This document shows, piece after piece, positions 1 through 28,617 of a stretch of 48,360 nt of DNA. The stretch spans positions 1 through 48,360 of the forward strand of contig JANXNI010000004.1 in NCBI GenBank assembly GCA_025354165.1, written 5' to 3'. Source of the DNA: Burkholderiales bacterium (GTDB lineage Bacteria; Pseudomonadota; Gammaproteobacteria; Burkholderiales; Casimicrobiaceae). The position numbers and the translations under genes are program-made. The notes beneath the pieces are model-generated. The model was given only the letters and a program-made list of their open reading frames with translations, did not search any database and was not told the origin of the DNA. Positions within the stretch are counted from its first letter, which is position 1. The number at the start of each line of letters is the position of its first letter.

Positions 1-1804
1 TCACGCCCTCACCATCCCAGCCGAGCGCGGCGAATTGGTTGTAGAGCGCGAGGCTGGTGGTGAATCGATGATTCGGGTCATCCGGAAAGCGTACCTGTCC
101 GCGAAACAAACGATACACCGGTGTCTGCCCTGGGGCGCAACTCCCGCCCATCCCCTCAATCAAGGGAGCAAACGCATAGGAATCAATGCCTTCGTTGACG
201 GGTAGTCGCGGCAGCGACAGGTTGTTCGGGTTGAGCCCCGAGAGCGCAGTTTTTTCGCTGTTGACCAGTGTGTAGAAGTGACTGCCACGGGTCTGATTGT
301 TCGCTATCTGGTCGAAGTAATAGCGGTTAATGCCGAGCGCGCCCGGGTCAGCAAAAGAACGTGTAGAAAACGATTGCCCCGTACGAGCCCAGCCAGGCAA
401 CGCGTCGAGCACTGCCATTTCAGTGTCGCGAGAGGTAAGAAAGTAATAGTTCAGCGGGTTGTAGATGTACTCGGTCAGCGTTTTAGGCGTGTTCGGGCCA
501 CCGTCGAAACGGGCGAGACAAAAATCGTCATTCGCGCCGTTGGAGCAATAGCCTGCGACGACGATCCTGCCGTCGGGCTGGAGCGCCATGCTGTTGGCGA
601 CATCGTTGCCGCTGCCGATCGGTGCGATGACTTTGCCGGTGCTGTTGAAGCTCGTGTCGAGTGTGCCATTGGCGAGGTAACGGGCGAGGCAAAAATCTAA
701 ATTGGTGCCGCTTACGCAATAGCCTGCGACGGCGATCTTGTCGTCGGGCTGGAGCGCGACGCTGTAGGCGTAATCGTCGCTACTACCGAGCGGCGTGATG
801 ACTTTGCCGGAGCCGTTAAAGCTTAAATCGAGTGAGCCATTGGCGAGGTAACGGGCGAGACAAAAATCGGAATTGGCGCCGTTGGAGCAAACGCCTACGA
901 CGACGATCTTACCGTCGGGCTGGAGCGCGAGGCTGATGGCGTAATCATCGCCAATGCCGATCGGTGTGGTGACTGCGCCGGAGCCGTTAAAACTTAAGTC
1001 GAGCGTGCCGCTGGCGAGATAACGGGCGAGACAAAAATCGTACGTAGCGCCGTTTACGCAATAGCCTGCGACGACGATCTTGCCGTCAGGCTGCAGCGCG
1101 AGGCCGCGGGCAACGTCGTCGTCAGTGCCGATCGCCGTGATGACTGTGCCGATACTGTTGAAGCTTACGTCGAGTGCGCCGCTGGCGAGATAACGGGCGA
1201 GACAAAAATGGGTGTTGGTACCGTTCGAGCACCTTCCTGCGACGACGATCATGCCGTCGGGCTGGAGCGCAACGCTGTAGGCAGCATCGGTGCCGCTGCT
1301 GATCGCCGTGAAGACTTTACCGGTACCGTTAAAGCTCAAGTCGAGTGTGCCGCTTGCGAGGTAACGCGCGAGACAAAAATCGTAAGTGGTGCCGTTGAGG
1401 CAAGAGCCTGCGACGACGATCTTGCCTTCGGGCTGCAGCGCGAGCGTATACGCGCCATCGTTGCCGTTGCCGATCGCCGTGATGACTTTGCCAGTGCCGT
1501 TAAAGCTCGTGTCGAGCGCGCCGTTGGCGAGGTAACGGGCGAGACAAAAGTCGTAATCAGCTCCGTTGGAGCAAGCGCCCACGACGACGATCATGCCGTC
1601 GGGCTGCAGCGCGAGGCTGTAGCCAACATCGGTTCCGCTGCCGATCGGTGTGATGACTTTGCCAGAGCCGTTGAAGCTAAGGTCGAGCGCCCCCGGTACT
1701 GCCGTTGCAAGCGTGCTCACGGCGAGGAGCAACAGCGCCAAGCCGCGCGCGGCCCAGCGTCGAAGGCATGCTGCGGAGTAATGGACGGAGATAAATCCAG
1801 TCAT
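1..1804 (-). CDS. Secreted delta-60 repeat protein with C-terminal DUF5648-like module (3' end cut by window edge)
   Basis: An uninterrupted minus-strand reading frame of 601 codons runs from ATG at 1804 off the left edge. Residues 1 to about 35 form a signal peptide (two Arg, then a Leu/Ala core ending ATA before VPG), so the product is probably exported. Residues about 39-430 are seven near-identical repeats of about 55-57 residues with the pattern LDxSFNGxGKV, LALQPDGKIVVAG, then two Cys in GxC and DFC; this is the delta-60 type, predicted to form a beta-propeller. After a FDGGP linker comes a module of about 150 residues with LNYYFLTSR, RTGQSF, SHFY, NHRFTT and a GWDGEG end. It matches the C-termini of the proteins at 25931 and 27400 and probably ends FC a few codons outside the window. 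The pattern resembles DUF5648 (recalled, not searched). Surface binding or adhesion is a guess. It is a tandem paralogue of the gene at 2009-3523. Confidence 0.88.
   Translation of the reverse strand, partial: MTGFISVHYSAACLRRWAARGLALLLLAVSTLATAVPGALDLSFNGSGKVITPIGSGTDVGYSLALQPDGMIVVVGACSNGADYDFCLARYLANGALDTSFNGTGKVITAIGNGNDGAYTLALQPEGKIVVAGSCLNGTTYDFCLARYLASGTLDLSFNGTGKVFTAISSGTDAAYSVALQPDGMIVVAGRCSNGTNTHFCLARYLASGALDVSFNSIGTVITAIGTDDDVARGLALQPDGKIVVAGYCVNGATYDFCLARYLASGTLDLSFNGSGAVTTPIGIGDDYAISLALQPDGKIVVVGVCSNGANSDFCLARYLANGSLDLSFNGSGKVITPLGSSDDYAYSVALQPDDKIAVAGYCVSGTNLDFCLARYLANGTLDTSFNSTGKVIAPIGSGNDVANSMALQPDGRIVVAGYCSNGANDDFCLARFDGGPNTPKTLTEYIYNPLNYYFLTSRDTEMAVLDALPGWARTGQSFSTRSFADPGALGINRYYFDQIANNQTRGSHFYTLVNSEKTALSGLNPNNLSLPRLPVNEGIDSYAFAPLIEGMGGSCAPGQTPVYRLFRGQVRFPDDPNHRFTTSLALYNQFAALGWDGEGV
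500..1688 (-). repeat. Seven-copy delta-60 repeat array inside the first gene
   Basis: Seven direct coding repeats, each about 165-171 bp, are visible even at DNA level: phrases such as CTCGCGCTGCAGCCCGACGG and TTTTGTCTCGCCCGTTA recur almost unchanged. The equivalent repeats in the neighbour at 2009-3523 are also seven but far more diverged from one another. This suggests recent homogenisation, by gene conversion or unequal crossing-over, in this copy only. Confidence 0.85.
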
Positions 1805-1925
1805 TGCGGCTTTCGGCTGAGGGGTGGAATCTGCGTCAGTGCCTCAGCAGATGGTACAGCGCTTCACCGAGCCGACTAAGACTCGTGCGACCTGAGGTGT
1901 GGTGTTGCGATGCGGTCCCTGATAG

Positions 1926-1998
1926 TTCGCGAACAAATTCTCAACATGCTCAAACGCCTGAACTCGATGGCGTTGCCTGAAGGGCCGAGGACGAGCAT
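1926..1998 (-). pseudogene. Remnant of the 3' end of the VOC gene
   Basis: This intergenic stretch aligns with 3563-3636, the last codons of the VOC gene, over about 74 bp with roughly seven substitutions and one deleted base (CCTGAACTC here, CCTTGAACTC there). The deletion breaks the frame and the stop codon is gone, so it is not coding. Weaker similarity continues to about 2020, into the last codons of the neighbouring delta-60 gene. The rest of the VOC gene is absent here. It is best read as a scar of a duplication that copied a delta-60 gene with the adjacent VOC tail. Confidence 0.8.
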
Positions 1999-2008
1999 AG
2001 GGGCGCTT

Positions 2009-3523
2009 TCACCGCACCAGCGACATCCCGCACTGCGTAACGAGGTAATCGCGAATCAGCGGCCATGTGTTACGTGTGGCGTTCGCCGCGAAGGTGATGC
2101 CGCCGATGACGGCGTTGCCGACGATGCCGAGGGCGATGCGCATGTTGATTAGCGCGTCGGTAGTGGCGAGGACGCGACCGTCACCGTCAATGTCCAATGA
2201 ACAGCTTTTGTAACCGAATGGCCCGCCGTCGTAGCGAATGGCACAGAAGCGGTCAAGTCCACCGATGACGCAAGAACCCGCCAAAATTGCTTTTCCGTCG
2301 GGCTGGATCGCTATGGCGCTGGGGACATCGGAAACAAGCCCGACACCCGTAACCACTGAGCCCGTGTCATTGAAACTTTTGTCAAGCGAGCCATCACTAT
2401 TAAGACGAAGTGCACAGTAAGAAAACTTACTCACATCAAAGCATTGTCCGGCAATTAATATTTTACCGTCATTTTGCAGAACGACCGCGTGTGCATTGTT
2501 ATCACCAACAGTGATTGACGTGACGACCTTTCCGTTCGTGTTGAAGTCAGAATCTAACGATCCATCGTGGTTGTAACGGGTCACGCAAAAAGTCCACGCA
2601 CTGTGGTCGCTGTTGATGCAATAACCCGCCAGCACAATTTTGCCGTCGGGTTGTATCGCCATGCTGGTTGCCGTGTCAAGGCCCGATCCCACAACCGTCA
2701 TCGTCGAGCCAGTGCCGTTGAAAGTGGTGTCCAGGCTGCCATTGGCGTCGTACCGTAGAGCGCAGAAGCTAGTCGTTATATTAACTGCGGCGATACTGCA
2801 TTCGCCTGCCAACACGATGCGACCATCAGATTGCAGCGCAGCCGAATGGGCGGCTGCGGTGTCGCCGATCAACGTCAGTATCTGACCGGTACCAGCGAAG
2901 CTGCTGTCAAGGCTCCCGTCAATATTAAGGCGCGCGGCGCACATGTAAGCCGTGTTGCCGATCTTGCAACCGCCTGCCAGAACAATTCGCCCATCTGGCT
3001 GTAGTGCGACAGCATTCGCTTGTCCATTGAGCATTCCAACCGCGAGAATTTTCCCGGCGACTCCAAAACCGGAGTCGAGCGTGCCATCCGAGTTGTATCG
3101 TGCGGCGCAAAAGTAATTTTGCGTTGGCATGATCGGGCAGCTTCCCACCAGAATGATCTTTCCGTCCGGCTGCAGGGCAACGGCGTTGGGGCTATCTCGT
3201 ACACCGCCTAAAACAGTAATTGCCTTGCCCGTTCCGTTAAAGTCCGTATCGAGCGAGCCATCTACGTTTTGCCGTATAACGCAAAAAAAGCGAACGACTC
3301 CGCTTCCGGTGCAATAACCCGCCGAGATCACTTTGCGGTCGGGCTGCAACGCAATTGATGTCACAGAGTCGTGACTTGGGCCCACCTCAATAATCGTTTT
3401 GCCGGCCCCAATAGGGCTTGTGGCTCCCCAAGATGGGTCCAGAGTTCCGGGCAGCCCCGGCGTGGCATTGCCTAGCGTCGTGAAGAAAAAGGCGAGATAA
3501 AAGAGAAATTTACGGGCAAACAT
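2009..3523 (-). CDS. Secreted seven-repeat delta-60 protein with dockerin-like C-terminus
   Basis: 504 residues. A short signal peptide (MFARKF, hydrophobic core, GNA) is followed by seven delta-60 repeats (about residues 28-430), each with LDxxFxxxGK, ALQPDGKIxLAG and a Cys pair (GxC, then FC or YC). Seven units suggest a seven-bladed propeller, perhaps with one disulfide per blade. After the FDGGP-like linker seen in its left neighbour (here YDGGP), the DUF5648-like module is missing. In its place is a tail of about 70 residues with CSLDIDGDGR and TTDALINMRIALG, which resembles one half of a dockerin or EF-hand calcium loop, ending QCGMSLVR. The last codons overlap the fading edge of the VOC remnant. 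Export is well supported by sequence; function is unknown, and cell-surface binding is only a guess. Confidence 0.88.
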   Translation of the reverse strand: MFARKFLFYLAFFFTTLGNATPGLPGTLDPSWGATSPIGAGKTIIEVGPSHDSVTSIALQPDRKVISAGYCTGSGVVRFFCVIRQNVDGSLDTDFNGTGKAITVLGGVRDSPNAVALQPDGKIILVGSCPIMPTQNYFCAARYNSDGTLDSGFGVAGKILAVGMLNGQANAVALQPDGRIVLAGGCKIGNTAYMCAARLNIDGSLDSSFAGTGQILTLIGDTAAAHSAALQSDGRIVLAGECSIAAVNITTSFCALRYDANGSLDTTFNGTGSTMTVVGSGLDTATSMAIQPDGKIVLAGYCINSDHSAWTFCVTRYNHDGSLDSDFNTNGKVVTSITVGDNNAHAVVLQNDGKILIAGQCFDVSKFSYCALRLNSDGSLDKSFNDTGSVVTGVGLVSDVPSAIAIQPDGKAILAGSCVIGGLDRFCAIRYDGGPFGYKSCSLDIDGDGRVLATTDALINMRIALGIVGNAVIGGITFAANATRNTWPLIRDYLVTQCGMSLVR

Positions 3524-3559
3524 GGTTGCTGCAACCTTTGCATAGACGTGTAGTGTGCA

Positions 3560-3979
3560 TTACTTCGCGAACAAATTCTCAATATGCTCAAACGCCTTGA
3601 ACTCAATTGCGTTGCCTGACGGGTCGAGGAAGAACATGGTGGCTTGTTCGCCGGGCTCACCTTTGAATCGGATGTGCGGTTCGATGATGAACTCGGTGCG
3701 GGCGTCTTGCAGACGGTCTGCGAGTTCGTGCCATTGCTTCATGGTGAGCACGACGCCGAAGTGGCGGCAGGGGACATTGTCGCCATCGACTTCGCTTGTT
3801 TTCGCCATTGAGCATTCTTCGGGCGCGAGGTGGGCGACGATCTGATGGCCGTAAAAGTCAAAGTCCACCCAGTGCGGGCTGGAGCGGCCTTCTTTGCAAC
3901 CGAGCAGATCGAGATAAAACTTGCGCGCGGCGGTGAGGTCGTGGGTCGGGAAGGCGAGATGGAATGGCTGGATGGACAT
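3560..3979 (-). CDS. VOC-family (glyoxalase/bleomycin-resistance fold) protein
   Basis: 139 residues, the usual length for a single-chain VOC protein with two beta-alpha-beta-beta-beta modules. The start reads [16 protein letters not shown], typical of the first module, with His8 a likely metal ligand. The end reads [15 protein letters not shown], where the Glu matches the usual C-terminal ligand, and a central CRHFGVVL suggests another His ligand. Such proteins are cytosolic metal-dependent isomerases, dioxygenases or lyases; the substrate cannot be read from sequence. No clear Shine-Dalgarno sequence precedes the ATG. The gene is divergent from the mscS-like gene. Its 3' end is the source of the remnant at 1926-1998. 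Confidence 0.9.
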
Positions 3980-4037
3980 GGTGGTGCTCGGTTTATTGCT
4001 GGGGAAGTTTGATTCTAGGTCGCGAGATAATCAAGGG

Positions 4038-5342
4038 ATGCTTACACCGTTCCAGGAAATCGCAAAAGAGCTCGAAGTCATCGATGGTCAAGACGTCGAG
4101 CACCTGTTTCTCGTGCTGGTCGCGATGGCGATCGGCATACTGATCGGGACGCTGCTGCTGCGCCGTCGCGAGCCCTCGTTGACGCGGTCACAGGCGTTGT
4201 GGCGCGTCACCGTCGTCGGCGTTACGTTTCCGCTGGTGACCTATGTGATTCTCGTGGCGCTGCGGCTGACGCCTTATGGCGTGGCTGCGGGCGCGTTGCC
4301 GAAGTTTGCGGTGCGCGTGTTTGCTGCGCTAATGGTGATGCGACTGATTGCGGGCGTATTGCGCCGGTTGTTCCCGAATTCGTCTCCCGTGCGCGGCAGT
4401 ATCAACATTGTCAGCGCGCTGATCTGGTTGATCCTTGTGATGCATCTGGCGGGCGTACTGCCGTTCATCGAGCAGGAGCTGGAGGCGATTGTCTTGCCGC
4501 TTGGCAAAACGCACGTGTCGGCGCTGACGCTGATTCAGGGCACGGCGCTGGTGGCGTTCACGGTGCTCGCTGCGTTATGGTTGTCGTCGATTCTTGAAAC
4601 GCGGCTGATGGCGACCGGCATCAACATGAGCATGCGTCTGGTGTTGTCGCGCTTTTTGCGGGCATTTTTGTTTGTGCTCGCGTTGCTGTTTGCGCTCGCG
4701 GCGGTGGGTATTGATCTGACCGTGCTGTCGGTGTTTGGCGGTGCGCTTGGCGTGGGTCTGGGCTTGGGTTTGCAGAAAATTGCGGCGAACTATGTGAGCG
4801 GTTTTGCCATGCTGCTCGAAGGCAGCTTTCGCGTGGGCGACAGCGTGAAAGTGGATGGCTTTGAAGGGCAGATCAGCAATATTTACACGCGCTACACCGT
4901 GGTGCGCGCTGCCAATGGCCGTGAGTCTGTAGTGCCGAACGAGATGTTCATTGTCAATCGTGTAGAAAACCTTTCGCTTGAAAGCCGCAGCGTTTCGTTC
5001 AATACCAAGTTGCAGATCGATTACGACAGCGATGTCGAGAAGGCACGCTCGTTGATGATCGAAGCGGCGTTGGCGCAGCCGCGCGTGCTTAAAAGCCCAG
5101 CACCGGGTGCCTTGCTCAGCGATTTTGCTGCGGATGGTCTGGAATTGACGCTCGGCTACTGGATCGCCGATCCGGAAAATGGCATCGGCAATGTTCGCTC
5201 GGACATCAACCTCGCCATCTGGCGGGCGTTCCAGGCGAGCAACATTAATGTGCCGTTTCCGCAGCGCGTGATTCGCGTGATTCAGGAGCCGGGCGAGGCG
5301 GCGCAACCGCTAAACTCCGCCGCTCCCGAAAAATCCGCGTAG
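4038..5342 (+). CDS. MscS-family mechanosensitive ion channel
   Basis: 434 residues from ATG 4038. The frame is open further upstream, but the earlier codons overlap the VOC start region and look non-coding. Several hydrophobic segments (about residues 20-40, 55-80, 90-115, 130-155, 170-190 and 205-230) are followed by the MscS pore helix and beta-domain at about 230-310: a Gly/Ala-rich GVGLGLGLQKIAANYVSG, then FRVGDSVKVDGFEG and VVPNEMFIVN. The C-terminal alpha/beta region ends near residue 420. MscS channels sit in the inner membrane and open under hypo-osmotic stress to release solutes; the N-terminus is longer than in E. coli MscS. No strong Shine-Dalgarno is evident (AAGGG abuts the ATG). 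Confidence 0.9.
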   Translation: MLTPFQEIAKELEVIDGQDVEHLFLVLVAMAIGILIGTLLLRRREPSLTRSQALWRVTVVGVTFPLVTYVILVALRLTPYGVAAGALPKFAVRVFAALMVMRLIAGVLRRLFPNSSPVRGSINIVSALIWLILVMHLAGVLPFIEQELEAIVLPLGKTHVSALTLIQGTALVAFTVLAALWLSSILETRLMATGINMSMRLVLSRFLRAFLFVLALLFALAAVGIDLTVLSVFGGALGVGLGLGLQKIAANYVSGFAMLLEGSFRVGDSVKVDGFEGQISNIYTRYTVVRAANGRESVVPNEMFIVNRVENLSLESRSVSFNTKLQIDYDSDVEKARSLMIEAALAQPRVLKSPAPGALLSDFAADGLELTLGYWIADPENGIGNVRSDINLAIWRAFQASNINVPFPQRVIRVIQEPGEAAQPLNSAAPEKSA

Positions 5343-5354
5343 TCCCCGAAGGTG

Positions 5355-5488
5355 TCTCTAGAAATTCACTTTATGGGGATGCAGTGTTAGGAGCCCGGAG
5401 CGCAGCAACCGGAACGTACGCCCTGGTACGTGAGGATTGCGAGTACCGCGCGACGACACAATGCGCCCCAGAAATGAATTTGTAGAGA
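5355..5488. repeat. Short inverted-repeat element, family B, copy 1 (tex leader)
   Basis: A 134-bp element bounded by 14-bp terminal inverted repeats: TCTCTAGAAATTCA on the left and TGAATTTGTAGAGA on the right (13 of 14 positions complementary). The interior, including GAGCCCGGAGCGCAGCAACC and GCGCGACGACACAATGCG, matches the element at 11777-11919 in opposite orientation. It fills nearly the whole gap between the mscS-like stop (5342) and the tex start (5494), so the tex 5' leader is largely element DNA. It has no coding capacity. It looks like a MITE, but no autonomous parent element was seen. Confidence 0.75.
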
Positions 5489-5493
5489 TACCG

Positions 5494-7860: not shown

Positions 7861-7946
7861 CACTCAAAAGAGCAACAACGCGCCCTGAGGGGTGCTTGTC
7901 TCGCAGTCCGTAGTGACGGTGAGCAAGGCTTGCGCGATTCTGGTTT

Positions 7947-7990
7947 GCTCGCATCTGGCTTGTCCCGCGCATTCGCGGGGGCGAGCTTTT
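7947..7990 (+). terminator. Probable rho-independent terminator after tex
   Basis: A nested stem-loop: outer GCTCGC (7947-7952) pairs with GCGAGC (7981-7986), inner CCCGCG (7964-7969) pairs with CGCGGG (7974-7979) around a CATT loop, followed by TTTT. The U tract is short, so termination may be partial. It lies 87 bp past the tex stop and before the secreted gene at 8019. Confidence 0.5.
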
Positions 7991-8018
7991 GATCGTTTGG
8001 TGAATCAGGGAGCGCAAA

Positions 8019-9746
8019 ATGTCTCCACGGAAATTGCTTCTTCAGTTCGCGTCTGTGCTGGCCGTCGTTGTCGTGCTGAACGCTTCGGCGCAGCCAGTGA
8101 CGGTCGTCGAGTATTACAACAAGACGCTCGACGCACACTTCATCACGGGGCGTGCCAGTGAACAATCCGCGCTTGACGGCGTCGCCGATTTTCAGCGCAC
8201 TGGCATGACCTTTCAGGCGACAGCTGTGGCAACCGCTGCGGCCAGCCTGACCAAGATTTGCCGCTTCTATATTTCGGTGGCGACGCCTTACGTTAGCTCT
8301 CATTTTTACGGGCGACAGGGCATCGATTGCGAATCCATTCGCGCGCAAAACCTGGCTGGATTTTCGTGGGAGGACTACGATTTTGCGACGCAACAACCCG
8401 CCGCTGGCGTGTGCCCAGTTGGAACCGTGACGATCTTTCGCGGCTTCCGTGCGGCAGCAAATGGCAAGACGTCCAACCATCGCTATAGCGCGAGTCAGGC
8501 GACCTACGATGCAGCTGTTGCTTCGGGCTATATTGGCGAGGGCGCAGCGTTCTGCGTCACCGCCGCCACTGCTGCGACGCCGACTACCGTCGCAGTGGCC
8601 ACGGCGGTGGGCACGCCGAATGGGACGGCGATCAGCGCGAGTATCGGCCCGTCGGGCGGTACGCTCACCAGCGCCGATGGCAGGCTGACGCTGACCGTTC
8701 CCGCCAACGCGGTGGCAAACAGCACTACCTTGAGCATCCAGCCGATCAGCAACGCGGCGCCGGGTGCCACCGGTAGTGCTTATAGGATGCTGCCCGATGG
8801 GCAGACCTTCGCGGTCCCGGTGAAGCTTTCATTCGCCTACGATGATCAGAGTCTGCGCGGTTCTGATCCCGATGCGTTGGGCGTGGTGTATCAAAACGGC
8901 CAGGGCTTCTGGCGTTCACTTAAAACGGTGCAACGGGATACCGTCAACCACACATTGACGGTATCGACATCGCACTTTAGCGATTGGACGTCGCACCTCA
9001 CGGGGCTTCAGCTTCAGCCCGGTGAGGCCTCCGTTGCGGTGGGCAAGTCCATTGGTTTGTTGCTGGTCAGTTGCAATACATATGAAGTGGGTGAGGATCT
9101 GCAAAGTCTGGCGCTGGCATGTGTGCCGCCATTTTTGACAGCAACCACATCAGGATGGGCGGTGAACGGAGCACCCGGCGGGGTCACCGGGCTCGGTCTG
9201 GTCGCAAAGACGAGCGGCATCAGTGCGACTTACACCGCACCGGCAACGAAACCGTCGCCGAATCGGGTGATAGTGAGCGCCGAACTGGTCGGCGCGGCAA
9301 AGAAGACCATTTTCGCGTCCAACATCACGATTATTGATGATTCATGGTCTGGACGCGCTACCGCCACCACCGAGTTCTTCCGTCAGACGGCGGACATCAA
9401 ATGGACATTGCTGCGCATCAACGGGAATGTCTCGGCCTATCAACCATCGGGAACGGCGAGCGGCGTTGATTTTCATTGTCCAATAACGCCTGCCAGCGCT
9501 CCGATCAGTCCGGGTGATGGAATCCTGATGGTCGACTACAGCACCGACCCGCCCACATGGAGTGGTGCCGGGGCAACGGCGTGGAGCGCCGTTCATGCGT
9601 GTCCAGCGCCGGAAGTTTCATACAGCGATCAGGTTTTCTCCATTTTTTTTGGCAGCGACACGGGAGTCGTCAGTGCGGGTGGCACGACCATTGAGGGTAC
9701 AAATGTGCAGGGCCCGTTGACGATCGTCTGGAAATTCACACGCTAG
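8019..9746 (+). CDS. Secreted protein: N-terminal DUF5648-like module, ZU5-like domain, unknown C-terminus
   Basis: 575 residues from ATG 8019, preceded by AGGGAG at a good distance. The signal peptide ends near ASA-QPV (residues 1-25). Residues about 26-185 form a DUF5648-like module: VEYYNKTLDAHFITGR, RTGMTFQ, SHFYGRQG, FRGFR, NHRYSASQATY, GEGAAFC. It is a divergent version of the module found C-terminally at 1-470, 25931 and 27400, with an insertion around SIRAQNLAGF. Residues about 205-260 (IGPSGGTLTSADGRLTLTVP, then ANAVANSTTLSIQP) resemble a bacterial ZU5 domain. The remaining 260 residues look beta-rich and are not recognised. The N-terminal 170 residues are closely similar to those of the next gene, so the two are a tandem pair. 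Function unknown; envelope or extracellular location is inferred from the signal peptide. Confidence 0.85.
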   Translation: MSPRKLLLQFASVLAVVVVLNASAQPVTVVEYYNKTLDAHFITGRASEQSALDGVADFQRTGMTFQATAVATAAASLTKICRFYISVATPYVSSHFYGRQGIDCESIRAQNLAGFSWEDYDFATQQPAAGVCPVGTVTIFRGFRAAANGKTSNHRYSASQATYDAAVASGYIGEGAAFCVTAATAATPTTVAVATAVGTPNGTAISASIGPSGGTLTSADGRLTLTVPANAVANSTTLSIQPISNAAPGATGSAYRMLPDGQTFAVPVKLSFAYDDQSLRGSDPDALGVVYQNGQGFWRSLKTVQRDTVNHTLTVSTSHFSDWTSHLTGLQLQPGEASVAVGKSIGLLLVSCNTYEVGEDLQSLALACVPPFLTATTSGWAVNGAPGGVTGLGLVAKTSGISATYTAPATKPSPNRVIVSAELVGAAKKTIFASNITIIDDSWSGRATATTEFFRQTADIKWTLLRINGNVSAYQPSGTASGVDFHCPITPASAPISPGDGILMVDYSTDPPTWSGAGATAWSAVHACPAPEVSYSDQVFSIFFGSDTGVVSAGGTTIEGTNVQGPLTIVWKFTR

Positions 9747-10012: not shown

Positions 10013-11221
10013 GTGAGTTTCAAAAATCTGCGTGCGCGTGGAGCGCTGGTCGTGGCTGGCGCAATGGCGTTGTGCGCTTTCAACGCGTTGGCGCAAATCG
10101 TAACGGTAGTTGAGTATTACAACAAAACGCTGGATGCCTACTTCGTCACAGGTCGTTCTGGCGAGCAAACAGCGCTTGATGGTGTGGCCGATTTTCAGCG
10201 CACGGGCATGACGTTTCAGGCGACGGCGGTGGCGGGCGCGGCGACCAACCAGACGAAGATTTGCCGCTTCTACATCAGCATTTCGAACCCCTATGTGAGT
10301 TCGCATTTCTATGGTCGCCAAGGCGTCGATTGCGAGAGTATCCGCGCGCAGAATCTGGCGGGGTTCACTTACGAAGACTACGACTTCGCGACGCAGCAAC
10401 CGGCGAGCGGCGTGTGCACGACGGGCACGACGGCGATCTATCGCGGCTTCCGGGCGGCGGCGGGCGGCAAGACGTCGAACCATCGCTACAGTGCGAGTCA
10501 GGCGACGTATAACGCAGCGATTCAGAAGGGCTATGTTGGTGAAGACGTTGCGTTCTGCGCGACCGCGGCGACAGCGGCAACCACGACGTCGCCACCTGCC
10601 GCCTCCGGTGATTGCGGGGCGTACTTTTTCCCCAACAAGAAGCTGACGTTGCAAACGACGTCGAGCACGCTCGGTACTGCCAGTCCCGCGACCACAGCGG
10701 TGCGAACCTATGATTCCACGCCTATCGTCTTTCACGGGCGCACGGTGAGTCAGGTGATTGATACGTCGCCGGGCTCGACCGCGGCCAACATGATTGAGGA
10801 TGGCGGTTCAACCTACTCCGAAATCGGCGCGCGCGGCGTCAGCAGCAGCGGGACCAACGAAACGTATTACACGCCGCCCATCGTTTATCCGAAAGTGATT
10901 GCGGTTGGTCAGCGCATTGATTTCACGCGTTCCATCACGTTTAGCCCGGCCTCGCCCAATGGCACTGGCACACAAACGGGCAGCGTCACGCTGGTCGCCA
11001 AAGAGTCCGTCACGGTGCCGGCGGGCACCTTTACGGCGTGCAAATTCCTGACCGATCAGGTGACGCAGTATCCAAGCGTAGGCTCTAACTCGCACACGGT
11101 GGCGACATCATGGATCGCAATTGATGTGGGTATCGTGCGTTCGGACATCACGGACACGACGACCGTTTCTGGTTTCAACGTGAGCAGTACGTCCCAACTA
11201 TTGGCTACGAAGGTGGAATAG
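10013..11221 (+). CDS. Secreted protein with N-terminal DUF5648-like module, tandem paralogue
   Basis: 402 residues starting at GTG 10013 with CGGGGG about 7 bp upstream. The signal peptide ends ALA-QIV (about residue 28). Residues about 29-185 are closely similar to the same part of the protein at 8019 (VEYYNKTLDAYFVTGR, RTGMTFQATAVA, SHFYGRQGVDCESIRAQNLA, NHRYSASQATY), so the pair arose by duplication. The C-terminal half differs: it begins CGAYFFPNKKLTLQT and includes VTVPAGTFTACKF and SWIAIDVGIVRSD, a beta-sandwich-like pattern reminiscent of DUF3108-type envelope proteins (weak resemblance). The shared N-terminus with swapped C-terminal domains marks the module as mobile between architectures. 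A strong terminator follows directly. Confidence 0.86.
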   Translation: MSFKNLRARGALVVAGAMALCAFNALAQIVTVVEYYNKTLDAYFVTGRSGEQTALDGVADFQRTGMTFQATAVAGAATNQTKICRFYISISNPYVSSHFYGRQGVDCESIRAQNLAGFTYEDYDFATQQPASGVCTTGTTAIYRGFRAAAGGKTSNHRYSASQATYNAAIQKGYVGEDVAFCATAATAATTTSPPAASGDCGAYFFPNKKLTLQTTSSTLGTASPATTAVRTYDSTPIVFHGRTVSQVIDTSPGSTAANMIEDGGSTYSEIGARGVSSSGTNETYYTPPIVYPKVIAVGQRIDFTRSITFSPASPNGTGTQTGSVTLVAKESVTVPAGTFTACKFLTDQVTQYPSVGSNSHTVATSWIAIDVGIVRSDITDTTTVSGFNVSSTSQLLATKVE

Positions 11222-11240
11222 GGCGGGTCTCGTCAGACGT

Positions 11241-18691: not shown

Positions 18692-18700
18692 CTTTCGAAT

Positions 18701-18791: not shown

Positions 18792-18809
18792 AAGGACAAG
18801 ACAAAAATA

Positions 18810-19601: not shown

Positions 19602-19605
19602 AAAC

Positions 19606-20640: not shown

Positions 20641-20674
20641 CGTTCAGGTCGCGAAGAAATACGGGAGAAACGTC

Positions 20675-21247
20675 ATGGGAACCGTCGAAGCCGCCGTCGC
20701 CACACAACTCGCCAACATCGAGAAACGCACCGGTAAATCGCTCGCTGAACTGGTCAAAATCGTCAAGGCCAGCGGTCTCAGCAAGCACGGCGAAATTCGC
20801 GATCATTTGAAGGACACGCTGGGCATTGGTTTCGGCGACGCCAACGCGCTGGCCCATCATGCCGCGAAAGCAGGCGATAGTGCCGTCGATAAATCCGCAA
20901 CACCGCCACATGACGTCGTCGCCGCGCTCTACGTCGGCCCGAAGGCCGCGCTGCGCCCGATCCACGACGCGCTGATGGTCAAGATCAACGCGTTCGGCGA
21001 ATTCGAAACCTCGCCCAAAAAAACTTACGTCAGCCTGCGTCGCAAGAAACAGTTTGCCATGCTCGGCCCGGCTACCAACACCCGCGTTGAGCTCGGTCTC
21101 AACATCAAATCGCTACCCGCCTGCGACCGCCTCGTCGAGCAAGCTGCGGGCGGGATGTGCAACTATAAAGTCAAGCTCACCGACGTTAACGAGGTGAATG
21201 CTGAGCTCGTGAACTGGGTGCGCGCCGCGTACGACGCTGCGGCCTAG
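20675..21247 (+). CDS. DUF4287/DUF5655-type protein
   Basis: 190 residues from ATG 20675 with GGGAGA about 8 bp upstream. Residues about 5-70 (ANIEKRTGKSLAELVKIVK, KHGEIRDHLKDTLGIGFGDAN) match the helical DUF4287 pattern. Residues about 90-188 (GPKAALRPIHDALMVKI, SPKKTYVSLRRKKQFAMLGP) match the DUF5655 pattern, a small alpha/beta domain that also occurs alone or near nuclease-like proteins. Both names are recalled from family patterns, not searched. No signal peptide, so cytosolic. Function unknown. It stands alone between a repeat element and a convergent ABC gene. Confidence 0.85.
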   Translation: MGTVEAAVATQLANIEKRTGKSLAELVKIVKASGLSKHGEIRDHLKDTLGIGFGDANALAHHAAKAGDSAVDKSATPPHDVVAALYVGPKAALRPIHDALMVKINAFGEFETSPKKTYVSLRRKKQFAMLGPATNTRVELGLNIKSLPACDRLVEQAAGGMCNYKVKLTDVNEVNAELVNWVRAAYDAAA

Positions 21248-21309
21248 CCGACCAGCCAAAAACGAACTGTCACCACTGCCCAAATGCCCGCGCTTACGCG
21301 TTGATTGGG

Positions 21310-22914: not shown

Positions 22915-22972
22915 CGGGCCTGCATTAAAAAGCTTCCGCTACACTGCATCTGACTATTTATCAGGTATGTTC

Positions 22973-23338
22973 ATGAACAAGTTTGTATTCCTCGCCGCCG
23001 CCGCGTTCGCGCCGCTGCTGCTCGTAGGCCCGGCTCACGCTGATCTGGCGCTGGCCACCGCCAAAGGCTGCACCGCGTGCCATCAGATCGACAAAAGAGT
23101 GGTCGGCCCTGCGTATGGTCAGGTCGCCGCCTGTTACGCCAGCAAAGACGCTAAAGTGCTGGCTGAGTCCAGAACGCAACTGATCAAGCACGTGAAAGAG
23201 GGCGGCGCAGGCAAGTGGGGCCCGATCCCGATGCCGGCGCACCCGGCGGTGGCAAATGAAGACGTGGCAAAAATCGTTGATTGGGTGCTGACGCAGAAGC
23301 CAATGGAATGCCCGAAAGAGTTCAAACCGAAGGCGTAG
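22973..23338 (+). CDS. Small periplasmic class I cytochrome c
   Basis: 121 residues from ATG 22973, chosen because AGG lies about 8 bp upstream; the ATG at 22967 is too close. The signal peptide ends AHA-DLA (about residue 23). The heme c motif CTACH lies at about residues 33-37, and PIPMPAHP supplies the likely Met axial ligand. The length and the KGCTACHQIDKRVVGPAYGQV block fit cytochrome c551/c552-type electron carriers. Two extra Cys (AACYAS and MECPKEF) are unusual and could form a disulfide tying the C-terminus to the body. It is divergent from the ABC gene and followed by a terminator. Confidence 0.93.
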   Translation: MNKFVFLAAAAFAPLLLVGPAHADLALATAKGCTACHQIDKRVVGPAYGQVAACYASKDAKVLAESRTQLIKHVKEGGAGKWGPIPMPAHPAVANEDVAKIVDWVLTQKPMECPKEFKPKA

Positions 23339-23370
23339 GCTTCGGAAAACCGCGCTTCGAACGAGAGGAG

Positions 23371-23408
23371 GCCTGCTGATCGGCAACGGCAGCGGGCTTT
23401 GTTTTGCC
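23371..23408 (+). terminator. Rho-independent terminator after the cytochrome c gene
   Basis: GCCTGCTG (23371-23378) pairs with CAGCGGGC (one G-U pair) around a 9-base loop, then TTTGTTTTG. It is 32 bp past the stop. The 480-bp gap 23339-23818 also holds the family-A element at 23478-23600; the remainder (about 23601-23818) shows no supported feature beyond an AT-rich TAAAAT near 23694 that might be a -10 for pckG. Confidence 0.7.
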
Positions 23409-23477
23409 CGATCCGTCCAGAAACTACAGAAAACTACGGAAGGCGGATTTCGCATGTAGCAGGGCAACAAGTTTGGC

Positions 23478-23600
23478 GTACAACTTATGGTGAAACGCCC
23501 TAGTTCACTTGGGATACACGTCGATTCAGTGCATAGTTGATTTTTCAATAAATAGGGTGTTAGCCCGCGTACAGTGGTGCGTTTAGTGAAAAGCTGTTAC
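23478..23600. repeat. Short inverted-repeat element, family A, copy 4 (degenerate)
   Basis: 123 bp. Left end GTACAACTTATGGTGAAACG and right end TTTAGTGAAAAGCTGTTAC are decayed versions of the family ends. The interior retains TTCACTTGGG and a GTCGATT-like block. The length and end spacing agree with the other three copies, which is the main support. Confidence 0.5.
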
Positions 23601-23818
23601 CGCTCAAACTGCGCCCACAAGGCGCTATTAGCGAAACGCATCCATCCATGCCCAAAGCGCATAACGACGACATGTAGCCGTTCGTAGCCTGAGCCTAAAA
23701 TAGAGGTTCTACGACGTGAACCCAATCGGTGCGCGTCGCGAAGCACCGCGCATGGTCTAACCGACCAGTTGTCTGCGGCGACATTCTTCAATCGTCGCAA
23801 TTCTTTTTCGCTTTCCCA

Positions 23819-25681
23819 ATGAATCAGCCCGAAACGCTCGCTACTTTGCAGGCCTCAGTCCTCGCCCCCGCTTACGTCAAAAACATTCGCCTTTTGGCGT
23901 GGGTTCGTGAAATGGCAGCACTCATGCAGCCCGACGCGATCCACTGGTGCGACGGCTCGGAAGCCGAATACAACCAGCTATGCAACGCGCTCGTCAAAGC
24001 GGGCACATTCAAAAAATTGAACGAGGCCAAGCGTCCGAATTCCTACCTCGCGCTGTCCGATCCATCAGACGTCGCCCGCGTCGAAGACCGCACCTTCATC
24101 TGCTGCGAGAAAAAAGAAAACGCGGGCCCGACCAACAATTGGGTCGCGCCCGCTGAGATGCGCGCCACATTGCGACCGTTATTCACCGGCTGCATGAAGG
24201 GCCGCACGATGTATGTGGTGCCGTTCTCGATGGGGCCGCTCGGCTCGCCGATTGCGCACATCGGTGTTGAGCTGTCCGATTCCGCTTACGTCGCCGTGAA
24301 CATGAAGATCATGACGCGCATGGGCAAGGGCGCGATTGACGTGCTCGGCGAATCCGGTGAATTTGTGCCGTGCGTGCACACCGTCGGCGCGCCTTTGGCG
24401 GCGGGTCAAAAGGATGTGACGTGGCCGAGTAACAAGACCAAGTACATCGTTCACTACCCTGAAACGCGCGAAATCTGGAGCTACGGTTCGGGCTACGGCG
24501 GCAACGCATTGCTCGGCAAAAAATGCTTTGCGCTGCGTATCGCGTCGAACATGGGCAAGCGCGATGGCTGGCTCGCAGAGCACATGCTGATCCTTGGCGT
24601 CACCAATCCGCAAGGCAAGAAATATCACGTCGCAGCGGCGTTCCCGTCGGCTTGCGGCAAGACCAATTTCGCGATGCTCATTCCGCCCAAGGGTTTCGAG
24701 GGCTGGAAGGTGACCACCATCGGCGACGACATCGCCTGGATCAAGCCGGGCAAGGATGGTCGCCTCTACGCAATCAATCCTGAGGCTGGCTATTTCGGCG
24801 TTGCGCCGGGAACGAACACCAAGTCGAACTTCAATTGCATGGCGTCCATCGAGCGCGACACCATCTTCACCAACGTCGCGCTGACCGATGACGGCGATGT
24901 TTGGTGGGAAGGCATGACGAAAGAAGCGCCCGCGCATCTGATCGACTGGCAGGGCAAAGAATGGACGCCGGCCATCGCCAAAGAAACCGGCGCCAAAGCC
25001 GCGCATCCAAACTCACGTTTCACCGTCGCCGCAACCAACAATCCCGCGCTCGACAGCGAGTGGGACAACCCGGCGGGGGTCGCGATTGACGCGTTCATCT
25101 TCGGCGGTCGTCGTGGCACCACGATTCCGCTCGTCACCGAGGCGCGTGACTGGGTGGAGGGCGTCTACATGGCCGCCACGCTGGGCTCGGAAACCACCGC
25201 CGCGATTGCTGGTCAGGTCGGCGTCGTGCGCCGTGATCCATTCGCGATGATCGCGTTCTGCGGATACAACATGAGCGACTATTTCGCGCATTGGCTCGCA
25301 ATGGGCCAGCGTATTGAAGCCGCTGGCGGCAAAGTGCCGAAGATATTCACCGTCAACTGGTTTCGCAAAGACGCCGACGGCAATTTTGTGTGGCCGGGCT
25401 TTGGCGACAACATGCGTGTATTGGCCTGGATGCTCGGGCGCGTTGACGGAACGGCAAAAGGTAACGAGCACGCTTTCGGCACAACGCCGAGCTACAGCGA
25501 CGTGAACTGGAATGGCTCGGATTTCAGCGACGCCGACTATGCCAGCATCAGCACGCTGGATCGTGATGCCGGTGTGGCAGAGGTCAAGCTGCATGCGGAA
25601 TTATTCGATTTGCTTAAGCACAACTTGCCAGCTGAATTGTCGGCGACCAAGGCGCGGATCGAGGCGCGTCTAGCGACGTAA
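23819..25681 (+). CDS. pckG: Phosphoenolpyruvate carboxykinase (GTP)
   Basis: 620 residues from ATG 23819; the frame is open from 23729, but the extra residues are not family-like. It converts oxaloacetate and GTP to PEP, GDP and CO2, the entry to gluconeogenesis; some bacteria run it in reverse. Motifs: the P-loop with the hyper-reactive Cys, [13 protein letters not shown] (about residue 277 on); metal-binding GDDIAWIK; nucleotide-binding block around [20 protein letters not shown] with FGGRR; and an intact C-terminus [12 protein letters not shown]. The length is standard for the GTP family. No Shine-Dalgarno is evident. A decayed copy of its last codons lies at 27181-27287. Confidence 0.97.
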
Positions 25682-25930
25682 CTGGTTCGGTCGGGGTGGC
25701 GGCTGCCAACACGGTATCCGTTTGCCCTGAATTCAGCGTCCAGCACGGAAACGGCTCCGGCACGTCGTCACGCGGTCATTCATTGGCTGCCTGCACGTAA
25801 CAATTCATTACGATTCGCTCGTTGCCGAGTCGAAAATGCGTATGTTTTTGTGTACGCTCGTGCGTTATTGCTGTGTTCAACGGGTCGCGCCCCAGCGCGC
25901 GATTCAAACTGAGCGCATAAAGGATAGCCA

Positions 25931-27139
25931 GTGACGAGTTTTAGCGACCGTGTTCGTTTGTGTATCACCCGTATTCGCGTGTCACGTGCCGCTGTGGCCG
26001 GACTGTCGGCACTGTTGCTGGCTTTTACGGCTCACGCTCAAAGTACCGCCAACGGCAAAACCCTCTACAACACCGTGCTGGTGGCGGGTGAAAAAAGCTG
26101 CAGCAACGGCGCCTGTCACGGCCCCGATCCGTCGATGAATCAAAACAAGATCAAGAACGGCACCAGTGCGGCGCACATCGCTTCGACGATCAACACCAAT
26201 CTCGACATGTTGTTTCTGCAGGGCGTTTTGACAACTTCGCAGCTGAACGATCTTGCGGCTTACATCACCAATCCGAACTCGACCAACACCGCACCGATAG
26301 CAACGCTTTCCTCGACCATCATGGGCTTCGGTCAGGTGACGGTCGGCACCACCAGCGCCGCACAAACGGTCACGCTCAAAAACACCGGCGCATCGGCGCT
26401 GCAAGTTTCAGCGCTGACGATGAGCAGCAGCGAATTCGCGTTGGCGACTGCGGGTGGCACTTGTACGGCGACGACCACGCTTGCTGTAGCGGCAAGCTGC
26501 ACCATCGCCATCACGTTCAGCCCTACTGCCGCGAGCGTCCGCTCAGGCACGCTTAGCATCGCGCACAACGCGGTAGGCAGCCCGAGCACGGTGTCGCTCG
26601 CCGGTACGGGCGTCGCGAGCACGAGCAGCACCACAACCGTAATGGTCGAGTATTACTATGCGGCGCTCGACTACTACTTCATCACGTCACGCGCGGGCGA
26701 TATCACCGCGCTTGATGCAGCGTCCGGCTGGGCGCGTACCGGAAAATCTTTCAACGTGTACACCACGCAGCAAATCGGCACCGTGGGGCTCAACCGCTAT
26801 TACTTCGACCAGATTGCCGTGCACAACACACGCGGCTCTCACTTCTATACCGTCGTGCAGGCCGAGAAAGATGCGCTGGCGAGCTTGAATGTGGCCAACG
26901 CGCAAACGCCGCGATTGCCCTACAACGAGGGCGTTGACTCATACGCTTTTGCACCTGTCGTGGAGGGTGTCGGCGGCGCTTGCGCGGCGGGGCAGGTGCC
27001 GGTGTTTCGCATCTTTCGTGGGCAAGCTCGATTTCCCGACAATCCCAATCATCGCTTCACCACCGACACGGCGGTGTACAACAGCTTTGTGGCTTTGGGC
27101 TGGGACGGGGAAGGCGTGAAGTTCTGCACGCCAAGTTAG
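25931..27139 (+). CDS. Secreted cytochrome c (CX4CH), ASH-like and DUF5648-like protein
   Basis: 402 residues from GTG 25931, with AAAGGA about 8 bp upstream. The signal peptide ends AHA-QST (about residue 37). A small cytochrome-like domain (about 38-120) has CSNGACHGPD: the spacing is CX4CH, not CXXCH. Residues about 125-232 form an ASPM-SPD2-Hydin-like (choice-of-anchor D) beta-sandwich: MGFGQVTVGTTSAAQTVTLKN, CTIAITFSP and GTLSIAHNA. Residues about 240-402 are the DUF5648-like module (VEYYYAALDYYFITSR, RTGKSFNVY, SHFYTVVQAEKDAL, NHRFTTDTAVYNSF, GWDGEGVKFC). The whole architecture repeats in the next gene. Probably extracellular or surface-exposed. Heme attachment needs proof, as no clear Met ligand was identified. 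Function unknown. Confidence 0.88.
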   Translation: MTSFSDRVRLCITRIRVSRAAVAGLSALLLAFTAHAQSTANGKTLYNTVLVAGEKSCSNGACHGPDPSMNQNKIKNGTSAAHIASTINTNLDMLFLQGVLTTSQLNDLAAYITNPNSTNTAPIATLSSTIMGFGQVTVGTTSAAQTVTLKNTGASALQVSALTMSSSEFALATAGGTCTATTTLAVAASCTIAITFSPTAASVRSGTLSIAHNAVGSPSTVSLAGTGVASTSSTTTVMVEYYYAALDYYFITSRAGDITALDAASGWARTGKSFNVYTTQQIGTVGLNRYYFDQIAVHNTRGSHFYTVVQAEKDALASLNVANAQTPRLPYNEGVDSYAFAPVVEGVGGACAAGQVPVFRIFRGQARFPDNPNHRFTTDTAVYNSFVALGWDGEGVKFCTPS

Positions 27140-27180
27140 AGAACATTCAAATCTCTGCCGCATAGCGTCGCTTCGGCATG

Positions 27181-27287
27181 CAGCGATCACCACGCTAGAT
27201 GCAGAACTGTTCGATTTGCTTAATCACAATCTACCTGGTGAAGTGACTGATACGAAAGCGACGATCGAAGCGCGGCTGGCGGCCTGA
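27181..27287 (+). pseudogene. Remnant of the 3' end of pckG
   Basis: Codons 27201-27287 read AELFDLLNHNLP, then GEVTDTKATIEARLAA and a TGA stop. This closely matches the PckG C-terminus ([28 protein letters not shown]). Immediately upstream, CACCACGCTAGAT matches CAGCACGCTGGAT of pckG, but about 36 bases between the two blocks are deleted. The rest of pckG is missing. It lies between the two tandem cytochrome/DUF5648 genes, in the same relation as the true pckG to the first of them. Confidence 0.88.
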
Positions 27288-27399
27288 TTTCGTTGTCTGG
27301 GCATTCCGCGCAACGTGCATCCAAGCTGCGCGTCGCCGGTGGGCTTGCCCTAAGCGCCGGAAGGAGGCAAACTCCCAACCCTACGAAAGGGTATGACAA

Positions 27400-28617
27400 A
27401 TGAATCCAGATTCGCTGCGCAGAGCGCACAACCGATACCGCACGCGCAATACCAGTGCTGTTCTGTGGCTTGTTGCGCTGGCCCTCGGAATGGGTGCGCT
27501 CTCCGCCTCTGCGGTGGCGCAGGACACCGTTGAAGGCAAAAGGCTCTACGTTAGTCCGCCAGGGCAGGGTCAGTTGAGTTGCTCGGCGAGTAGTTGCCAT
27601 GGCCCCGATCCCACCGCCAACCTGAACCGGGTCAACAGTGCGGCGAATTTCCCTGCTGTTATCACGGCGGCCACGCAAACTGTGCCGGCGATGGCCTTTC
27701 TGCAAAACCGGTTTTACCCGGCACAACTCGCCAATCTTGCCGCCTTCATCGCCGACCCGCGACAGCCGGATCAACTGCCTGTTGCCACACTGTCACCCGC
27801 GATGGTTACCTTCGATCCGGCGAATCTGGGCACCACCAGCAGTGTGCGCATCGTCACCCTTACCAACACCGGCGTAGTTCCGCTGCAGCTTCGTTCGATC
27901 GCCATAAACACGGATGAGTTCGCATACGCCGTTGGCAACTGCGCGCCGACCGCCACACTCGCTGTCTACAGCGGCTGCAGCATGGGCATCACTTTCACTC
28001 CGAAGATGGTTGGCTTGCGCACGGCCACACTCACCCTAACCCACAATGGCTCCCCTGGCATCACGACGCTTGCGCTCTCAGGCACTGGCAAGCTTGCAGA
28101 CGTCGCCACGACGCGCCCAATGGTGGAATACCGTAACGTCGCGCTCGATTACTACTTCATAACCTCGCGCCTGAGCGACATCGCGCTGCTTGACTCGTTA
28201 GCCGACTGGAGGCGAACCGGAAAATCATTCAACGTATACGCCTCGTCGGTTCTTGGTTCCGCTGGTATCAACCGATACTACTTCGATCAGGTCGCGTTCG
28301 GCGGTTCGCGAGGAACACATTTTTACACACTGGTTGCAGCCGAAAAAGACGGGCTGGATCGCCTCAATCCGCGCAACGTGCCCACGCCGGGGCTACCGTA
28401 CAACGAAGGCGTTGATTCATACGCATTCGCGCCGCTCGTCGAAGGCATTGGTGGCGTCTGCGCACAGGGCCAGATACCTGTCTATCGACTGTTCCGCGGC
28501 CCGACCGTATTCCCCGATAACGCAAACCACCGATTCACCACGGACACAGCGGTTTACAACAGCTTTGTGGCTTTGGGCTGGGACGGTGAAGGCGTTAAGT
28601 TCTGTGTGCCCAATTAG
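27400..28617 (+). CDS. Secreted cytochrome c (CX4CH), ASH-like and DUF5648-like protein, tandem paralogue
   Basis: 405 residues from ATG 27400, preceded by GAAAGGG. The signal peptide is long (hydrophobic core LVALALGMGALSAS, end VA-QDT). The same three domains as in the preceding gene follow in the same order: cytochrome-like part with CSASSCHGPD (again CX4CH); ASH-like part (VTFDPANLGTTSSVRIVTLTN, SGCSMGITFTP, TLTLTHNGSPG); and DUF5648-like module (VALDYYFITSR, RTGKSFNVYASS, THFYTLVAAEKDGL, NHRFTTDTAVYNSF, GWDGEGVKFC). The C-terminal module is much better conserved between the two than the cytochrome part, which suggests selection or gene conversion there. The gene is convergent with the yffB-like gene, with only 7 bp between them. 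Confidence 0.88.
   Translation: MNPDSLRRAHNRYRTRNTSAVLWLVALALGMGALSASAVAQDTVEGKRLYVSPPGQGQLSCSASSCHGPDPTANLNRVNSAANFPAVITAATQTVPAMAFLQNRFYPAQLANLAAFIADPRQPDQLPVATLSPAMVTFDPANLGTTSSVRIVTLTNTGVVPLQLRSIAINTDEFAYAVGNCAPTATLAVYSGCSMGITFTPKMVGLRTATLTLTHNGSPGITTLALSGTGKLADVATTRPMVEYRNVALDYYFITSRLSDIALLDSLADWRRTGKSFNVYASSVLGSAGINRYYFDQVAFGGSRGTHFYTLVAAEKDGLDRLNPRNVPTPGLPYNEGVDSYAFAPLVEGIGGVCAQGQIPVYRLFRGPTVFPDNANHRFTTDTAVYNSFVALGWDGEGVKFCVPN

What the first reader, a model, noticed from the sequence alone, without database searches (positions are those of the whole stretch)
1..28617. Five secreted proteins share one DUF5648-like module in four architectures
Seen: the pattern VEYYxxxLDxYFxTxR, RTGxxF, SHFY, FRG, NHR, GxxGEGxxFC occurs C-terminally in the genes at 1-1804, 25931 and 27400 and N-terminally in those at 8019 and 10013. 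Partners are a seven-blade delta-60 array, a ZU5-like domain, an unnamed beta-rich domain, or a CX4CH cytochrome plus ASH-like domain. All have signal peptides. Inference: a modular surface or extracellular binding family under expansion in this genome. If so, the module is the constant part (perhaps ligand or surface attachment) and the partner sets the activity.
Basis: partly seen in the sequence, partly recalled or inferred. Interest (0 to 1): 0.72.

Follow-up and report, generated by a model that had tools for sequence, protein, structure and literature searches.

The report
Interchangeable docking modules on secreted proteins
Five secreted proteins of an uncultured bacterium share one small folded module at either end of otherwise unrelated proteins, and the same lineage swaps it for a second, dockerin-like module, which suggests a plug-in tag that decides where secreted enzymes end up.

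Summary
All five window genes carry Pfam DUF5648 above its cut-off: N-terminal at 8019 and 10013, C-terminal at 1-1804, 25931 and 27400. N- and C-type modules are one family (hhalign E 6.8e-48), predicted with the same three-fold strand-strand-helix-strand order. The genome has 25 copies (24 strong, 1 weak): 8 N-terminal, 17 C-terminal. Partners include S41, S8, matrixin, astacin and trypsin-like proteases, a multicopper oxidase, DUF1800, an esterase-like hydrolase, delta-60 propellers and a CX4CH cytochrome-like domain. The expansion belongs to the whole bacterial family, not this genome.

Neighbouring window genes 2-1804 and 2009-3523 are 44% identical up to one junction, then carry different modules. 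A decayed dockerin-like tail lies just behind another DUF5648 gene.

Most likely a targeting or attachment cassette, probably glycan-binding as proposed for Bacteroidales toxins. Binding itself was not testable.

The parts
2..1804 (-). Secreted protein, 7 delta-60 (DUF5122) repeats plus C-terminal DUF5648 (2-478); cut by the contig edge
   Evidence: Pfam, NCBIfam, module borders
2009..3523 (-). Paralogous delta-60 protein; same chassis but a C-terminal dockerin-like tail (2012-2212) instead of DUF5648
   Evidence: 44% identity to the gene above up to DGGP
8019..9746 (+). Secreted protein: signal peptide, N-terminal DUF5648 (8103-8555), weak ZU5-like region, C-terminal domain shared with L038
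10013..11221 (+). Secreted protein: signal peptide, N-terminal DUF5648 (10106-10558), DUF3108-like C-terminal domain
25931..27139 (+). Secreted CX4CH cytochrome-like domain (26033-26284), one ASH / choice-of-anchor D domain, C-terminal DUF5648 (26642-27127)
27400..28617 (+). Tandem paralogue of 25931: CX4CH cytochrome-like domain (27514-27765), ASH, C-terminal DUF5648 (28120-28605)

Best explanation
The module is a self-contained, probably disulfide-braced three-bladed beta-alpha domain (DUF5648). It is placed at one end of a Sec-exported protein, either behind the signal peptide or at the extreme C-terminus, and works as a targeting or attachment cassette. It most likely binds a surface or extracellular polysaccharide (the cell's own envelope or floc matrix, or another cell's glycan) and so holds the attached enzyme, oxidase, cytochrome or repeat domain in place. 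In this genus it is parallel to a second terminal cassette, a dockerin-like tail, and homologous chassis carry one or the other. Shown: the family, the predicted fold pattern, terminal placement, covarying cysteine pairs, lineage-wide expansion, alternation on shared chassis. Inferred: disulfides, surface attachment and glycan binding.
For: One homologous module at both ends with the same strand-strand-helix-strand x3 order in both models (pLDDT by block of ten 77-98 over the 25931 module apart from its first, border block (82), and 70-94 over the 8019 module), matching the published (beta3-alpha)3 description (PMC11299179, passage; PMC12853789, passage). Of 66 near-complete modules (24 here, 42 from relatives), 0 are internal: 57 C-type modules end 0-15 residues before the end of the frame, 9 are N-terminal (the two loci with broken or cut modules, L080 and L083, were left out). 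One cysteine pair is kept in 65 of 66 (the 66th is cut by the contig edge); a second pair is present together in 13 and absent together in 53, never singly, as expected of disulfides in an exported domain. Partners are of unrelated folds and activities. The two cassettes alternate on homologous chassis: delta-60 (44%), DUF1800 with both modules N-terminal (36% identity outside the module), S8 protease (40%; there the DUF5648 match is the weak one), RCC1 repeats (40%, two genomes). Published: DUF5648 characterises the C-terminal domains of the largest group of Bacteroidales antibacterial toxins, a group with homologues of three that target O-antigen, and occurs in glucan-synthesising GH70 enzymes (passages).
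Against: No ligand, no solved structure (module profile: 0 PDB sequences at E up to 1; Foldseek of the 8019 model: 0 PDB hits at E <= 0.001) and no localisation data. Many partners (delta-60, cytochrome-like, DUF1800, multicopper oxidase) are not carbohydrate-active, so the ligand need not be a glycan. Chassis and module mostly travel together: 10 label changes on the quick tree where 7 is the minimum for eight labels (no shuffled control), so exchange is real but not rampant. One S8 pair tried (L035 with L096) is too distant to align. The prediction tool returned no coordinates, so conserved surface patches could not be mapped.
Confidence: 0.55

Rival explanations
1. Protein-protein docking cassette: DUF5648, like the dockerin-like tail, plugs secreted proteins into an unknown scaffold protein, so the lineage builds extracellular multi-enzyme assemblies.
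For: It shares chassis and chain end with a dockerin-like module; Pfam Dockerin_1 is reported in two tail proteins (L108, L116; E about 4e-6).
Against: No cohesin match in the genome (PF00963). Dockerin_1 was reported in only 2 of the 15 tail proteins scanned. Published DUF5648 contexts point to glycans.
Confidence: 0.17
2. Sorting or export signal: the module is recognised by the type II secretion system or an outer-membrane machinery and marks proteins for the outside, in the manner of T9SS C-terminal domains.
For: Nearly all bearers look Sec-exported (23 of 25 by heuristic), complete C-type modules stop 2-15 residues before the end, and a GspD secretin is encoded. ASH-like domains occur in other secreted proteins such as VesB and VesC (Foldseek hits).
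Against: It also sits at the N-terminus, behind the signal peptide (8 of 25 genes), unlike known C-terminal sorting domains (recalled). Elsewhere DUF5648 is reported in one prophage endolysin and in GH70 enzymes of Lactococcus and Enterococcus (passages), hosts without such machineries (recalled).
Confidence: 0.13
3. Stability cap only: a robust domain that protects protein ends from proteolysis and has no specific ligand.
For: Strictly terminal position and kept cysteine pairs; partners include many proteases.
Against: Fifteen positions are invariant over 21 modules as little as 27% identical to the first, more than a cap seems to need. PMC12853789 (title and passages) treats the DUF5648-type C-terminal domains as receptor-binding domains.
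Confidence: 0.1

Closest known systems
Pfam PF18885 (DUF5648)
   Same: All 5 window genes pass the curated cut-off; (beta-beta-alpha-beta)x3 in both models.
   Different: Window proteins score only 32-49 bits, against up to 146 bits elsewhere in the order: a diverged branch. The optional second cysteine pair is found in 13 of 66 modules, 7 N-terminal and 6 C-terminal, and most C-type modules have a longer blade-2 to blade-3 stretch.
C-terminal receptor-binding domain of group-1 Bacteroidales secreted antimicrobial proteins (BSAP-2, BSAP-3)
   Same: Same Pfam family, terminal, tied to target recognition; O-antigen receptors (PMC12853789, passages seen).
   Different: There joined to a pore-forming toxin; here joined to proteases, oxidases, cytochrome-like domains and repeat propellers. 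No pore-forming domain was reported in the proteins scanned.
(beta3-alpha)3 auxiliary domain of GH70 glucansucrases
   Same: Same Pfam family and strand/helix order (PMC11299179, passage seen).
   Different: Attached to a sugar-polymerising enzyme in lactic acid bacteria.
Dockerin type I
   Same: The alternative tail has the DxDGDG...D motif, often as a paired repeat, and sits at protein ends; PF00404 is reported in 2 of 15 tail proteins scanned.
   Different: No cohesin match; the last acidic residue is one position later than in my recalled dockerin pattern; 13 of the 15 scanned miss PF00404.
NCBIfam choice-of-anchor D (NF012200) proteins
   Same: The ASH domains of 25931 and 27400 pass this model (61.8 and 50.5 bits, cut-off 45); the family name reflects varying C-terminal anchors (recalled).
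   Different: Here the end is DUF5648, not one of the short sorting signals that I recall for the family.

Membership tests
DUF5648 (PF18885) | score above the curated gathering threshold | tested here: met
   5 of 5 window genes, 32.5-48.8 bits against 25
DUF5648 (PF18885) | three-bladed beta-alpha propeller, beta1-beta2-alpha-beta3 per blade | tested here: met
   secondary structure of both AlphaFold2 models; as a sequence repeat only partly detectable: blades 1-2 and 2-3 score above 40 shuffles, blades 1-3 do not
DUF5648 (PF18885) | glycan or receptor binding | not testable with these tools
   proposed in PMC12853789 (passages); no structure or ligand at hand
Class I cytochrome c (N-terminal domain of 25931 and 27400) | CXXCH haem motif | tested here: not met
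   16 of 16 aligned domains have CX4CH; a looser pattern found no other spacing in the 42 related proteins
Class I cytochrome c (N-terminal domain of 25931 and 27400) | distal Met and cytochrome-like C-terminal helix | tested here: met
   M59 invariant, followed by a conserved AAYI-type helix end; all 16 PDB sequences matched at E up to 1 are cytochromes c4, c6 or c-552, each weak, best E 0.0019; Cytochrome_CBB3 in 9 of 16 members at E <= 0.1, best 4.3e-4, below cut-off in the window member
C-terminal sorting domain (T9SS CTD / PEP-CTERM type) | found only at the C-terminus | tested here: not met
   8 of 25 copies in the genome are N-terminal
Dockerin/cohesin system (alternative tail) | a cohesin partner in the same genome | tested here: not met
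   PF00963: 0 matches; a diverged cohesin, or one in the missing part of this 95% complete draft, cannot be excluded
Dockerin/cohesin system (alternative tail) | Pfam Dockerin_1 match | tested here: inconclusive
   reported in 2 of 15 tail proteins scanned (L108, L116), not in the window tail itself even at E up to 10

The most novel reading that the evidence does not exclude
This genus tags much of its exported proteome with one of two exchangeable, position-independent end cassettes, DUF5648 or a dockerin-like tail, together about 70 genes in this genome, which act as two address codes for two different extracellular receptors. Genes change address by recombination at or near the chassis-cassette junction. 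Cytochromes with CX4CH haem sites are given the DUF5648 address only (3 of 3 here), which would place single-haem redox proteins on a glycan matrix outside the cell.
Probability: 0.3. Interest if true: 0.75.

Novelty: new variant of a known kind. Interest (0 to 1): 0.5.

Why it matters
Terminal address tags for secreted proteins are known in T9SS, PEP-CTERM and cellulosome systems (recalled). Two large exchangeable sets in one uncultured Burkholderiales lineage, one of them DUF5648, are not described in the passages I saw of the three papers that name DUF5648 or PF18885; listings for choice-of-anchor and for non-cellulosomal dockerins were seen by title and abstract start only. If the module binds glycans, it gives a ready assay for what holds the extracellular proteins of these sludge and reactor bacteria in place, and it links a receptor-binding domain of antibacterial toxins to ordinary enzyme display.

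Tried and rejected
Chance similarity: rejected (25 genome copies, 15 invariant columns in 21 modules). Unrelated folds at the two ends: rejected. Expansion private to this genome: rejected. Mobile element or phage origin: not supported; no plasmid or phage record matches the 25931 protein at E 1e-5 (that one protein only). Cellulosome: no cohesin match.

Led nowhere: Foldseek of the 8019 model against PDB and BFVD gave nothing at E <= 0.001; only its N-terminal 180 residues or so are confidently modelled. Foldseek of the 25931 model returned mainly ASH/PapD-like and other Ig-like domains; aligned ranges are not shown, so no structural match to the module itself is claimed. A PDB profile search with the dockerin-like tail gave only chance-level hits. 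The first structure alignment (A5) misaligned partial rows and was replaced by A7.

Caveats: loci came from a C-type query, so they under-sample N-type modules. PF18885 counts are lower bounds for modules (own genome: 23 Pfam matches in 21 genes, against 25 modules with the lineage profile; one search scored at most 13 candidates per genome). Of 63 tail matches, the places of 61 were fetched and re-read (and the window). Three modules (L039, L081, L082) have two further cysteines at other places. Correlations over 17 genus genomes (DUF5648 count with genome size rho 0.70, tail count with genome size 0.64, the two counts 0.57) ignore relatedness. The tree is a quick tree with long branches. My guess of Casimicrobiaceae is recalled and untested (one search was only a literature listing).

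It led me to withdraw the statement that the extra cysteine pair marks the N-terminal type.
Full report
Observation. The module is about 150-162 residues long and sits behind the signal peptide in 8019 and 10013, and at the very end of 2-1804 (-), 25931 and 27400. The partners were read almost correctly: seven delta-60 repeats, a weak ZU5-like region (E 0.024), a DUF3108-like domain (E 2.3e-7) rather than an unnamed one, and a cytochrome-like domain plus ASH / choice-of-anchor D.

One fold at both ends. Profiles of 6 N-type and 15 C-type modules of this genome align over 149 columns with hhalign probability 100 and E 6.8e-48. AlphaFold2 models of 8019 and 25931 give the same order of elements, strand-strand-helix-strand three times, as published for DUF5648 in GH70 enzymes (PMC11299179, passage); [quoted passage not shown] In sequence the blade repeat is faint: blades 1-2 and 2-3 score above all 40 column-shuffled controls, blades 1-3 do not. 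The cysteines suggest an exported, oxidised domain: the blade-3 pair is present in 65 of 66 modules (the other is cut by the contig edge), and a second pair is present together in 13 and absent together in 53. The second pair does not follow the chain end: 7 of the 13 are N-terminal, 6 C-terminal. No PDB sequence matches the module profile at E up to 1.

Genome and lineage. A lineage-specific profile finds 25 modules in the genome, 24 at E <= 8.8e-40 and one at 5.4e-7. Eight are N-terminal and 17 C-terminal. Partners: S41 protease with PDZ, multicopper oxidase, DUF1800, DUF3108-like (all with N-terminal modules); PAF-acetylhydrolase/dienelactone-hydrolase-like esterase, S8 protease, matrixin with ASH, astacin, trypsin-like protease, delta-60 propeller, cytochrome-ASH, and several without a Pfam name (one of the 25, L033 7209-8447, was not scanned). 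Relatives add CARDB, kelch, RCC1, YHYH and Ig-like repeats. Placement is terminal: of 66 near-complete modules (24 here, 42 from relatives; L080 and L083, broken or cut, left out), 57 end within 15 residues of the end of the frame, 9 are N-terminal, none is internal. PF18885 occurs in 17 of 17 genomes of the genus, own included (1-30 matches each), 6 of 7 other members of the family and 1 of 16 genomes of other families. In 300 genomes of the order, 24 have a match: 9 of the 10 family members shown, and 15 of the rest. The expansion is therefore an old trait of the family, not of this genome.

A second, exchangeable end module. The window's neighbouring gene 2009-3523 is a delta-60 protein without DUF5648. 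It is 44% identical to 2-1804 up to the sequence R[Y/F]DGGP and then carries a different, about 65-residue tail with a DxDGDG motif. A profile of six such tails finds 63 matches in the genome. Re-reading 61 of these places gives 50 matching frames, two of them the same gene in overlapping stretches. In 42 of the 50 the tail ends within 24 residues of the end of the frame; 8 lie elsewhere, 7 of them near the N-terminus and one, L122, in the middle of an RHS-like frame by eye. Pfam Dockerin_1 is reported in 2 of the 15 tail proteins scanned; no cohesin is found. The tail is nearly confined to the genus: 17 of 17 genus genomes (5-102 matches), 1 of 7 family relatives (one weak match), 0 of 16 others. 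Homologous chassis carry one or the other module at the same end: delta-60, DUF1800 (36% identity outside the module, both modules N-terminal), S8 protease (40%, the DUF5648 copy being the weak one), RCC1 (40%, two genomes; repeats, so less telling). One S8 pair tried, L035 with L096, is too distant to align. On contig C53 a remnant of a delta-60 blade and dockerin-like tail (C53:131601-131732; the tail part 78 bases at up to 87% identity to intact tails, the blade part 42 bases at 79%) lies about 50 bases behind the stop of the delta-60/DUF5648 gene. This is either a displaced old end or a collapsed tandem gene; both mean recombination between the two kinds.

Within the window the same is seen in small. 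8019 and 10013 are 74% identical over signal peptide and module (74.5% in DNA over 506 bases that cover the module) and not significantly similar after it; 8019's last domain is shared with the N-type protein L038 (36% identity). The module is kept while the partner changes.

Limits on exchange. On a quick tree of 66 modules the N/C position changes 3 times and the chassis 10 times, where 7 is the minimum for eight labels; no shuffled control was run. Modules mostly stay with their chassis and are re-fused now and then. Delta-60 appears in three separate places on the tree.

The cytochrome-like domain. 25931 and 27400 belong to a recurrent architecture, cytochrome-like domain, one to about eight ASH domains (counted by eye), DUF5648: 3 genes here, the only matches of its profile in the genome, and 13 of 42 relatives, some of the others being cut upstream. 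In all 16 the motif is CX4CH, with an invariant Met. The profile's 16 matches in the PDB at E up to 1 are all cytochromes, each weak, best E 0.0019. CX4CH is counted as a haem motif in surveys of iron oxidisers (PMC10734462 and PMC5566968, passages). Haem attachment is not shown.

Mechanism. Shown: export-signal-like starts, a folded end module by prediction, terminal placement, lineage expansion, a second end module on shared chassis. Inferred: the module attaches its cargo to something outside the cytoplasm. Glycan is the best guess because related DUF5648 domains are the C-terminal domains of toxins that use O-antigen as receptor and occur in glucan-synthesising enzymes. A docking role, an export signal and a mere end cap remain possible. 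An export signal of the C-terminal type fits poorly with 8 N-terminal copies.

Novelty. The domain family, its fold and a glycan-receptor proposal are published. Its use as a general end cassette in this lineage, alternating with a dockerin-like tail, is not described in the passages I saw of the papers that name DUF5648 or PF18885 (3 papers and 1 of the same); those searches cover only the open library.

Noticed in passing
window 2009-3523 (-), tail at 2012-2212: Delta-60 protein with a dockerin-like tail of a nearly genus-specific family that has 63 matches in this genome.
   Followed up: yes
G000 contig C53:131601-131732 (-) (in L086): Decayed remnant of a delta-60 blade and dockerin-like tail just downstream of an intact delta-60/DUF5648 gene.
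   Followed up: partly
window 26033-26284, 27514-27765; L032 and 13 related loci: Cytochrome-like domain with an unusual CX4CH motif in 16 of 16 members, tied to ASH plus DUF5648.
   Followed up: partly
L041 3655-5889 (-) (G000 C83): S8 protease whose C-terminus is a strongly diverged DUF5648-like module (E 5.4e-7 with the lineage profile) that Pfam does not report at E <= 0.001.
   Followed up: partly
L033 4033-5271 and 7212-8447 (-), L036: Three paralogues with nearly identical DUF5648 modules and an N-terminal part for which Pfam reports nothing in the two that were scanned.
   Followed up: no
window 28982-31084 (-): Large signalling protein that looks by eye like PAS-GGDEF-EAL, next to the DUF5648 cytochrome genes; any regulatory link is untested.
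   Followed up: no
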